DNA of 32,392 nt. It comes from an uncultured Solirubrobacteraceae bacterium. GTDB lineage: Bacteria; Actinomycetota; Thermoleophilia; Solirubrobacterales; Solirubrobacteraceae. The notes below the pieces were generated by a model that searched no databases, was not told the origin of the DNA, and worked only from the letters and a program-made list of their open reading frames with translations. Made by a program: the position numbers and the translations under genes. The DNA is taken from positions 1-32,392 of the forward strand of contig CADCVR010000030.1 of assembly GCA_902806205.1 (NCBI GenBank), read 5' to 3'. Every line of letters starts with the position of its first letter. Position 1 is the first letter of the stretch. Positions 15,468 to 27,842 of this stretch are shown here, in pieces.

Positions 15468-16481
15468 ATGCGCGCGGCCACCCCGATTCTCTGCGTCCTG
15501 CTGCCTCTGGGCCTTCCGGCGGTCGCCCAAGGCCAAAGCCTTCTCACGCCGAAGCCCCCCGCCACGACGCCCGCGCCACCCCCGGCGGCCGCTCCGGCTC
15601 CGGCTCCGGTCGCGGGCGTGCTGGCGATCCGGGCCGAGCGCGTCGGACGCGGCCGCACGGTCCTGGCCGGCGCGCGCTGGCGCGTCCGCGGGAGCCTCAC
15701 CCCCTACGTCCCCGGCCAGCAGGTCACCGTGCGCTTCCTCCGCGGGAGCCGCAAGCTCGGCGTGAAGCGGGTCACGCTGCTTCCGAGCACCGGAAACACC
15801 GGGGCGTTCGTCGTCGGCTTCCGCACCACCCGTCCGGGTCCCGTGGTGGTGCGCGCTTCGCACCCGGCCACGCCGGAACTGGCCACCGCCGTCGCGCGGC
15901 CGACGTCCGTCGACGTGCTGCCGCTCCGTGTGCGGGCGGGCGCGAAGGGTCTTGCCGTGCGCATGCTCCAGCAGCGCCTCGCGCGGCTCGGCTACGTCGT
16001 CGGGCGCCGCGGGCGCTTCGACGCGCGGACCGGCCGCGCCGTCCTGGCGTTCCGCAAGGTCACCGGAATGGCGCGGACCTCCGCCGCCGACCGCGCCGTC
16101 CTCAGCCGCCTCGCGCGCGGCCGGGGCGCCTTCCGCGTGAGGTTTCCCCGCCATGGGCGCCACGTCGAAGCCGACATCTCGCGGCAGGTCGTCGCCCTGA
16201 TCGGGGCGGGCGGGAAGGTCGAGCGGATCCTTCCCACCTCGTCCGGAGCGCCCTCGACCCCGACGATCCTCGGTTCCTTCCGGATCTACCGCAAGGACTT
16301 CGGGACCAACGCGCTCGGGATGGTCCACGCGGCGTACTTCATCCGGGGCTACGCGCTCCACGGCTTCCGCTCCGTGCCGACCTACGGGGCGAGCCACGGC
16401 TGCCTGCGGGTGCCGATCGGCGACGCGCTGAGCCTCTTCCGCTGGGTGCGCCACGGCACCCGGGTGGATACGTACCGCTGA
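15468..16481 (+). CDS. L,D-transpeptidase with peptidoglycan-binding domain
   Basis: This exported enzyme would make 3-3 cross-links in peptidoglycan or attach proteins to it. The 337-residue product has a signal peptide (1-22), a Pro/Ala linker (28-48), a beta-rich region (50-150), and a PG_binding_1 domain (about 157-215, LRVRAGAKGLAVRMLQQRL, then LGYVVG). The YkuD catalytic domain (about 230-337) follows. The active site is complete: His298 in YALHGF and the SHGCLRVP motif with His310 and Cys312. Five bases after the stop begins the palindromic element 16487-16646, and the next gene converges on it. With the class A PBP and the sortase it forms a group of cell-wall enzymes across this window. 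Confidence 0.93.
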   Translation: MRAATPILCVLLPLGLPAVAQGQSLLTPKPPATTPAPPPAAAPAPAPVAGVLAIRAERVGRGRTVLAGARWRVRGSLTPYVPGQQVTVRFLRGSRKLGVKRVTLLPSTGNTGAFVVGFRTTRPGPVVVRASHPATPELATAVARPTSVDVLPLRVRAGAKGLAVRMLQQRLARLGYVVGRRGRFDARTGRAVLAFRKVTGMARTSAADRAVLSRLARGRGAFRVRFPRHGRHVEADISRQVVALIGAGGKVERILPTSSGAPSTPTILGSFRIYRKDFGTNALGMVHAAYFIRGYALHGFRSVPTYGASHGCLRVPIGDALSLFRWVRHGTRVDTYR

Positions 16482-16486
16482 ACCTA

Positions 16487-16646
16487 AGCCTGGATCCACC
16501 GATTCTCGCGGCGAATCCCCGCCGTGGCCGAGGCCATATGCCCGTTCGGGGCTTCCCAAAGGGCTCACCCTGAGGGTGCGCCCCGAACGGGCATCTGACC
16601 GGGCCCACGACAGGGATTCGTCCCCGATGATCGGTGGATCCAGGCT
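16487..16646. repeat. Nested palindromic element, single copy in this window
   Basis: A 160-base fold-back. The outer arms AGCCTGGATCCACCGAT (16487-16503) and ATCGGTGGATCCAGGCT (16630-16646) are perfect complements over 17 bases and continue imperfectly about 13 bases further in (GAATCCCC against GGGATTC). The inner arms ATGCCCGTTCGGGGC (16538-16552) and GCCCCGAACGGGCAT (16580-16594) are perfect over 15 bases, and ACCCTGAGGGT (16567-16577) sits in the loop. It starts five bases after the L,D-transpeptidase stop and abuts a different repeat. It could be a small non-autonomous mobile element or an RNA 3' structure. No coding frame in it looks real. Confidence 0.8.
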
Positions 16647-16648
16647 AA

Positions 16649-16812
16649 GTGCTCCGATTCCGAAGTTCCATGGCAGCATCCGGGCGCCTCGCCGGGCCGT
16701 GCCGCCCGGCGACGGCCCCGCAAGTACGCCCAGTACGAGCAGGGCCGTCGCCGAACGCCACGGCGCGCCGATCCATCCCGGGTCCTGCGACGGAACTTAC
16801 GAATCGGAGCAC
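16649..16812. repeat. Intergenic palindrome family, long copy (164 bases)
   Basis: The ends are GTGCTCCGATTC (16649-16660) and GAATCGGAGCAC (16801-16812), and the stem continues as AAGTTCC against GGAACTT. The first 33 bases from 16648 are identical to the copy at 25041. The left ~45 and right ~70 bases also match the copy at 27726 closely. A 47-base stretch found only here contains its own inverted pair, GACGGCCC and GGGCCGTC. Its right end is eight bases from the stop of the minus-strand gene 16821-17183. Confidence 0.88.
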
Positions 16813-16820
16813 CCAGGGCC

Positions 16821-17183
16821 TCAGCGGCCGGCGGCGAACCGGGCGAGGAAGCCGCCGCCCAGGCCGTAGAGCAGGAGCGCGAGGGCGGCGGGCCCGGTGC
16901 GGCGCAGCCAGCGGCTGCTCGCGTCCTCGAAGACGGGCGCGAAGGGGGAGAGCAGCGCGTCGTTGGCGTCGTCGACGACTTCCCGCGCGCCGGAGTGGGC
17001 GCGTTCGCGGGCGCGCTCCTGCTCCGTCGAGGGGTCGGGGGAGCGTGACGCGCGGCGCCCCTCGATCTCCGTGGTGGTGCGGTCGGAGGCGCTGCGCGCC
17101 TCGTCGATCGCGAACAGCGCCCATCCCGCGACGACGACGAGGCTGGCCAGGACCGCGAAGCCACGAAGGAGGGACTCGAGCAC
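16821..17183 (-). CDS. Small hypothetical membrane protein
   Basis: The family is not recognised. The 120-residue product has a hydrophobic helix near the N-terminus (about 8-26, FAVLASLVVVAGWALFAI), a charged central part (30-75) rich in Arg, Glu and Ser with a possible coiled coil, and a second hydrophobic helix (about 97-116, GPAALALLLYGLGGGF). The start is GTG 17183, six bases after TAGCCT on the minus strand, a promoter it shares with pyrE. The 3' end meets the palindromic element 16649-16812. The two helices, clean promoter spacing and defined 3' end support a real gene. Confidence 0.75.
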   Translation of the reverse strand: MLESLLRGFAVLASLVVVAGWALFAIDEARSASDRTTTEIEGRRASRSPDPSTEQERARERAHSGAREVVDDANDALLSPFAPVFEDASSRWLRRTGPAALALLLYGLGGGFLARFAAGR

Positions 17184-17835: not shown

Positions 17836-17907
17836 GCCCTCGTAGTTCAACGGATAGAACGAGCGCCTCCTAAGCGCTAGATGCAGGTTCGATTCCTGCC
17901 GGGGGCA
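17836..17907 (+). tRNA. tRNA-Arg (anticodon CCT)
   Basis: A 72-base cloverleaf. The acceptor stem GCCCTCG (17836-17842) pairs with CGGGGGC (17900-17906) with one G-T pair and discriminator A at 17907. The D arm is GTTC/GAAC. The anticodon stem AGCGC/GCGCT holds loop CTCCTAA with anticodon CCT at 17869-17871. The T arm is GCAGG-TTCGATT-CCTGC. CCA is not encoded. It decodes AGG, a rare Arg codon in DNA of this composition. Confidence 0.96.
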
Positions 17908-25040: not shown

Positions 25041-25096
25041 AGTGCTCCGATTCCGAAGTTCCATGGCAGCATCAGGAACGTACGAATCAGAGCACT
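25041..25096. repeat. Intergenic palindrome family, minimal copy (56 bases)
   Basis: AGTGCTCCGATTCCGAAGTT begins the left arm and AACGTACGAATCAGAGCACT ends the right arm. Only about a dozen loop bases (ATGGCAGCATCA) lie between the GTTCC/GGAAC stem tops. It equals the 16649 copy with about 107 central bases missing. It lies between convergent genes, 22 bases after the lipoprotein stop, and its last base is the first base (plus strand) of the nitroreductase stop codon. Confidence 0.88.
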
Positions 25097-27725: not shown

Positions 27726-27842
27726 GTGCTCCGTTTCCGACGTTCCGTGGCAGCATCCGGGCGCCTTCGCCGGTCCGTCGTCGGACGCCACGGCGCGCCG
27801 ATCCGTCCCGGGCCCTGCGGCGGACCCTACGAATCGGAGCAC
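27726..27842. repeat. Intergenic palindrome family, middle-length copy (117 bases)
   Basis: The ends are GTGCTCCG (27726-27733) and CGGAGCAC (27835-27842). It matches the 16649 copy throughout but lacks its 47-base inner block. It lies between the GalT-like gene and the AEC gene. Its right end reaches 16 bases into the GalT-like coding sequence, giving that gene's last residues (CSDS) and its TAG stop (27827-27829). Confidence 0.88.

What the first reader, a model, noticed from the sequence alone, without database searches (positions are those of the whole stretch)
16487..16646. Second, unrelated nested palindrome directly next to the first family
A 160-base element with perfect 17-base outer arms and perfect 15-base inner arms begins 5 bases after the L,D-transpeptidase stop and ends 2 bases before the 164-base repeat. 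Each of the two convergent genes thus has its own fold-back at its 3' end. It has MITE-like form without a visible target duplication, or it could be a structured 3' RNA.
Basis: partly seen in the sequence, partly recalled or inferred. Interest (0 to 1): 0.55.

Follow-up and report, generated by a model that had tools for sequence, protein, structure and literature searches.

The report
Transposon-derived hairpin seated at stop codons
The fold-back is a small non-coding jumping element, probably moved by a known kind of transposase, that inserts at the five-base motif CTNAG; most copies examined in related bacteria sit exactly on a gene's stop codon, which the duplicated target preserves, so the gene stays intact.

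Summary
The palindrome is real and is a MITE. The host genome holds an inverted 155/156-identical copy flanked by TTAAG and a 99-bp deletion copy flanked by CTTAG. Relatives with the same gene lack the insert. The same ends and duplication bound 1.6-kb elements in relatives that encode a 427-430 aa IS1380-family transposase, the likely motor; the host draft holds only transposase fragments, and 7 of 13 carrier genomes searched showed none. The neighbouring 164-base repeat is a second family with other ends but the same CTNAG target. The arms covary strongly across 30 copies. Outside the apical stem, G-T and A-C mismatches are about equal, which favours upkeep at the DNA level over selection on one RNA strand. 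The unexpected part: every CTNAG contains a stop codon on one strand, and 26 of 34 copies overlap a gene's stop, against 82 of 646 background CTNAG sites and 2 of 11 autonomous copies. Placement looks like survival after insertion rather than homing, but that is inferred. New member of a known kind with an unusual seat.

The parts
16489..16644 (.). 156-bp MITE (family 2), one long imperfect fold-back with a nested inner stem
   Evidence: copies in the own genome and in relatives
16489..16503 (+). left terminal inverted repeat CCTGGATCCACCGAT
   Evidence: same ends on 1.6-kb IS1380 elements
16630..16644 (-). right terminal inverted repeat
16538..16594 (.). inner stem (15-bp arms 16538-16552 and 16580-16594) with apical hairpin
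   Evidence: columns covary across 30 copies
16484..16488 (.). left target duplication CTAAG
   Evidence: 19 of 34 two-ended copies have identical 5-mers on both sides
16645..16649 (.). right target duplication CTAAG, at the same time the left flank of the neighbouring element
16650..16811 (.). neighbouring MITE (family 1), ends TGCTCCGATTC; its right flank CCCAG (16812-16816) is not identical to its left flank CTAAG
15468..16481 (+). upstream gene, L,D-transpeptidase (YkuD plus peptidoglycan-binding domain); stop TGA at 16479-16481, 2 bases before the duplication
16821..17183 (-). convergent gene, 120-aa protein conserved beside the transpeptidase in several relatives

Best explanation
It is a non-autonomous DNA transposon (MITE) mobilised in trans by an IS1380-family DDE transposase. 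The transposase recognises the 15-bp ends, cuts a CTNAG target with a 5-base stagger and inserts, and repair leaves CTNAG on both sides (ends and duplication shown; the enzyme's role inferred). Every CTNAG contains a stop codon on one strand: CTAAG has TAA or, on the other strand, TAG; CTGAG has TGA; CTTAG and CTCAG are their complements. When the target is a gene's stop, the duplication leaves that stop in place and the element becomes a hairpin just after it. In compact GC-rich genomes, insertions inside genes are lost and those at gene ends, especially between convergent genes, survive (inferred). In this window the element lies 2 bases past the transpeptidase stop, not on it, beside a second CTNAG element. 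The fold-back is kept by DNA-level processes or by the needs of transposition; any effect on mRNA ends is a side effect (inferred).
For: Own-genome copies: C42 copy 155/156 identical, inverted, flanked TTAAG/TTAAG; C19 99-bp copy flanked CTTAG/CTTAG. Identical 5-mers on both sides in 19 of 34 two-ended short elements; three of these (TTAAG, GTAAC, TTTAG) and four IS-size cases (CTAAA, CTAAC, TTTAG, GTTAG) depart from CTNAG yet match on both sides, which shows the duplication is 5 bp rather than 3. Same ends and duplication on 1.6-kb elements with an NF033539 IS1380 transposase (309-316 bits, cut-off 180); G007, same genus, has 12 matches over the cut-off. Empty sites: only the own locus among 30 transpeptidase loci has an inward-facing pair of these ends, and only the own locus among 20 for the C19 gene. 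C19: homologues in 13 of 20 relatives with a match align to the last residue, and in 7 of 9 printed relatives where the register held the stop falls at the same place, 3 of them reading CTGAG, with no element. Stop overlap 26 of 34, background 82 of 646, IS-size 2 of 11.
Against: No complete transposase in the host draft, only three fragments; in 7 of 13 carrier genomes searched no IS1380 match was found, one of them a single-contig assembly. Internal sequence resembles no known autonomous element beyond the ends (by eye). 15 of 34 copies have unequal flanks, four of them CTNAG with a different middle base. The window copy itself does not overlap a stop.
Confidence: 0.92

Rival explanations
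1. A structured RNA module: a bidirectional 3'-end hairpin that terminates transcription or protects mRNA, spread by transposition but kept by selection for the RNA.
For: Very stable fold; 32 of 48 pairs show changes on both sides, 125 doubly changed cells against a shuffle mean of 22.4; strong enrichment at stops and between convergent genes (16 of 34 against 42 of 461 background non-coding sites); in the apical stem G-T cells outnumber A-C by 21 to 1, as one RNA strand would allow.
Against: Outside the apical stem G-T and A-C cells are 19 and 25, so neither RNA strand is favoured; the apical excess comes mostly from one column pair. Orientation to the gene 15 same, 13 opposite. No terminator-like site with a T tract between 16300 and 17000; no Rfam family matched here at gathering score.
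Confidence: 0.15
2. Homing to gene ends: the transposase or a host factor guides insertion to stop codons or to sites of transcription termination.
For: Stop overlap remains enriched against non-coding CTNAG sites alone (26 to 6, against 82 to 276; Fisher p 6e-11).
Against: Autonomous-size elements are at stops in 2 of 11, close to background, 8 of the 11 from one genome. The 'inter' background class certainly holds some misjudged coding sites, which inflates the contrast.
Confidence: 0.1
3. REP/BIME-type palindrome moved by a RAYT (Y1 tyrosine) transposase.
For: Extragenic palindrome in many intergenic places.
Against: 5-bp target duplications and perfect terminal repeats shared with a DDE-transposase element; RAYT-type movement leaves no duplication (recalled).
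Confidence: 0.02

Closest known systems
IS1380 insertion-sequence family (NCBIfam NF033539; Pfam PF13701)
   Same: Ends and 5-bp duplication are those of 1.6-kb elements that encode this transposase. IS1247 of this family is listed with 1672 bp, inverted repeats 16/13 and a 5-bp direct repeat (PMC3281130, passage seen).
   Different: The window element encodes no transposase and shows no IS-like sequence inside the terminal repeats (by eye).
Bacterial MITEs, e.g. QMITE2 of Coxiella burnetii
   Same: 150-190 bp, stable stem, mainly 3' of genes (PMC5896051, abstract and passages seen; PMC10969869 section 3.3 read).
   Different: QMITE2 has 7-11 nt duplications of variable sequence; here 5 bp, CTNAG, overlapping stop codons. 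One QMITE2 lengthens a protein (enhC, same passages); here the stop is preserved.
RUP, BOX and SPRITE elements of pneumococcus
   Same: Small repeats that bunch together and insert into one another (PMC10969869 section 3.3), as with the two adjacent families here.
   Different: Other ends and motor (recalled); not compared by sequence here.
REP/REPIN elements with RAYT transposases
   Same: Extragenic palindromes (papers seen in search listing only).
   Different: No duplication expected there (recalled); duplications and DDE-type partner here.

Membership tests
MITE | short, no transposase gene | tested here: met
   156 bp, no coding content of its own considered
MITE | terminal inverted repeats | tested here: met
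   perfect 15 bp
MITE | target site duplication | tested here: met
   CTAAG/CTAAG here; identical 5-mers in 19 of 34 short copies
MITE | several dispersed copies and empty sites | tested here: met
   3 two-ended copies plus one-ended remnants in the own genome; empty sites
MITE | ends shared with an autonomous element | tested here: met
   1.6-kb elements in G007, G061, G062, G051
MITE | mobilisation by that transposase | not testable with these tools
   needs a transposition assay
IS1380-derived (partner) | partner transposase over the curated cut-off | tested here: met
   NF033539 316.1, 308.9 and 309.3 bits, cut-off 180, for 3 of 3 proteins given
IS1380-derived (partner) | complete transposase in the same genome | tested here: not met
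   three fragments only in the 108-contig draft; the C15 fragment lies at a contig edge and is followed by a right end plus CTTAG
intrinsic terminator | hairpin followed by a T tract | tested here: not met
   0 sites in 16300-17000; longest T run in 16484-16655 is 2
known Rfam RNA | match at gathering score | tested here: not met
   only a tRNA at 17836-17907 in the window

The most novel reading that the evidence does not exclude
A transposable element whose target motif is in effect the stop codon of GC-rich genes: CTNAG always carries a stop on one strand, the duplication preserves it, and so the element spreads as a gene-end module that adds a long hairpin right after the stop, with a function there (insulating convergent transcripts or setting mRNA ends) that has kept the fold by compensatory change across genera.
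Probability: 0.2. Interest if true: 0.65.

Novelty: new member of a known kind. Interest (0 to 1): 0.42.

Why it matters
It explains two puzzling fold-backs between convergent genes as two transposon families that share one target motif, and offers a simple rule by which an element can spread through compact GC-rich genomes with little harm: hit a motif that carries a stop codon and leave the stop in place. That rule can be tested with a single transposition assay and with RNA-seq, and it predicts where such elements accumulate.

Tried and rejected
A 3-bp duplication (TNA) with longer ends was considered and rejected: seven elements with off-consensus flanks match on both sides at all five positions. 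REP/RAYT and intrinsic-terminator readings were considered and rejected. A search for an autonomous partner of the neighbouring family by its ends gave only G000 as a multi-copy genome; the 8 other genomes had one or two one-mismatch hits each. The literature was searched for IS1380 with MITE, for MITE with stop codon, for IS1380 with target site, for CTNAG-type motifs, for stop-restoring duplications and for convergent genes; no listing described a stop-seated IS1380 MITE, but only open-access papers are held, and listings were judged by title and abstract except for passages of three papers.

Limits of the counts. The 34 short elements were chosen by me from the 89 rows (chance pairings dropped), with L038 added by hand; they come from 15 genomes, 11 of them from G010; outside G010 stop overlap is 17 of 23. 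Two IS-size rows were left out of the 11: L096 (decayed, CTTGG/CTTAG) and L153 (truncated). The alignment used 30 of the 34: three short copies and L101 (174 bp) were left out. Coding frames were judged by a GC3 rule, not by a gene finder. One search gave 87 of 543 for the background with a different filter. The neighbouring family has stop overlap in 7 of 16 and identical flanks in 6 of 16, after one chance pairing is dropped from the 17 rows. The orientation count used lists typed, and counts five elements twice (one stop on each side). Three of the eight spacers are negative (overlapping ends by the script) and one (L195) did not end at a stop, so only four (11, 1, 24 and 10 bases, against 339 here) are firm. 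Seven of the 29 relatives' transpeptidase loci hold lone or outward-facing two-mismatch matches to the 13-base end, taken as chance.

Full report
What is there. The nested palindrome is present at the stated place and folds far better than shuffles (z -11.5 as RNA, -10.2 as DNA). The flanks read CTAAG on both sides (16484-16488, 16645-16649), so the element proper is 16489-16644 with 15-bp terminal repeats CCTGGATCCACCGAT.

Copies in the own genome. A DNA search found a second full copy on contig 42 (155 of 156 bases identical, inverted), flanked by TTAAG on both sides, and a 99-bp deletion copy on contig 19 flanked by CTTAG on both sides, plus one-ended remnants on contigs 64, 78, 46 and 15.

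Copies in relatives. 15 of 151 genomes searched, the own one included, have a DNA match; 60 of 146 genomes of the family have at least one match to CTNAG plus the end at up to two mismatches, which includes autonomous elements and lone ends. A scan of genome contigs with a degenerate pattern for one subterminal arm gave 20 stretches, whose titles read Solirubrobacteraceae, Solirubrobacterales, Candidatus Solirubrobacter or Actinobacteria; records of the own genome may be left out of that scan. Of 34 two-ended short elements, 19 have identical 5-mers on both sides, 16 of these CTNAG. Seven further cases, three among the 34 and four IS-size, have identical flanks that depart from CTNAG (TTAAG, GTAAC, TTTAG; CTAAA, CTAAC, TTTAG, GTTAG), which fixes the duplication at 5 bp.

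Likely motor. Inward-facing pairs of the same end 1.6 kb apart occur in G007, G061, G062 and G051 with CTNAG duplications. Those in G007 and G061 contain an open 427-430 aa frame that scores 309-316 bits against NCBIfam NF033539, IS1380 family (cut-off 180), and matches Pfam DDE_Tnp_1_4. G007, of the same genus, has 12 matches over the cut-off. The host has three fragments; the one on contig 15 lies at the contig edge and is followed by a right end and CTTAG. Against this link: of 13 carrier genomes searched, 7 gave no IS1380 match, and only G012 and G092 had one over the cut-off. So the link rests on shared ends and target, not on co-occurrence.

Empty sites. Among 30 transpeptidase loci (own and 29 from relatives) only the own one has an inward-facing pair of the ends. 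Where the convergent neighbour is kept and the reading is firm, the spacer is 1-24 bases in four relatives, against 339 here. For the contig-19 copy the stop of the adjoining gene lies inside the duplication. Homologues in 13 of 20 relatives with a match align to the very last residue. Of 9 relatives printed, 7 kept the register; their stops fall at the same place without an element, and 3 read CTGAG. Insertion at a stop codon is thus shown by comparison at one locus.

Stop codons. Every CTNAG holds a stop codon on one strand or the other. By a GC3 frame rule, 26 of 34 short elements have flanks in which the CTNAG-like 5-mer carries the stop of a coding frame; the same rule gives 82 of 646 for other CTNAG sites in the fetched DNA and 2 of 11 for IS-size elements. 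Outside G010, which gives 11 of the 34, it is 17 of 23. Against non-coding CTNAG sites alone the excess remains (26 to 6, against 82 to 276; p 6e-11), although that background must hold some misjudged coding sites. 16 of 34 lie between two convergent gene ends, against 42 of 461 background non-coding sites and 0 of 11 IS-size elements. The window copy lies 2 bases past the transpeptidase stop and does not overlap it.

The fold across copies. In 30 aligned copies, 32 of 48 pairs show changes on both sides, and doubly changed cells number 125 against 22.4 in shuffles and at most 35 in slid controls. In helices 1-5, G-T cells are 19 and A-C cells 25; in the two apical helices they are 21 and 1, mostly from one column pair. 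Elements lie in both orientations to the adjoining genes (15 and 13). I read this as upkeep of the DNA palindrome, with the apical stem as an open question. No terminator-like T tract was found.

The neighbour. The 164-base family has many copies in the own genome (51 matching pieces at E 0.001 or better, both strands counted). Its copies carry CTNAG at their edges; 6 of 16 two-ended ones have identical flanks and 7 of 16 overlap a stop. In the window the two elements share one CTAAG. A likely order is neighbour first (its right flank has decayed to CCCAG), then this element into the neighbour's left CTAAG; this is inference.

Novelty. As a MITE with an IS1380 partner it is a new member of a known kind. 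The CTNAG and stop-codon coincidence was not met in the searches made, which cover open-access papers only. The prokaryotic MITE review PMC10969869 has no occurrence of IS1380 or of 'stop codon' in its main text. The nearest precedent seen is QMITE2 of Coxiella, found mainly 3' of genes (PMC5896051, passages).

Noticed in passing
window 16650-16811, 25043-25094, 27727-27841: Three copies of the neighbouring family lie in this window, two of them deletion copies; the 52-bp copy at 25043 has CTCAG on both sides and the right one carries a TGA of the adjoining gene by the GC3 rule.
   Followed up: partly
L037, L073, L100, L102 (this family); L110, L111, L112, L120 (neighbouring family): Flanks are CTNAG on both sides but with a different middle base; in L073 and L102 each flank carries the TGA of its own convergent gene. 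Mutation, recombination between copies, or joining of two CTNAG sites with loss of the DNA between could explain it.
   Followed up: no
L064, L069 (54-56 bp) and L005 (99 bp): Very short derivatives with both ends and identical flanks, two of them little more than two terminal repeats face to face.
   Followed up: partly
G007, contig 1: A same-genus genome with 12 IS1380 transposase matches over the cut-off, a likely recent expansion.
   Followed up: partly
alignment A1, columns 19-25 and 145-153: A subterminal internal loop (CGCGGCG against CATCCACG) is nearly invariant and asymmetric between the arms across genera; it may be a protein-binding or orientation signal.
   Followed up: no
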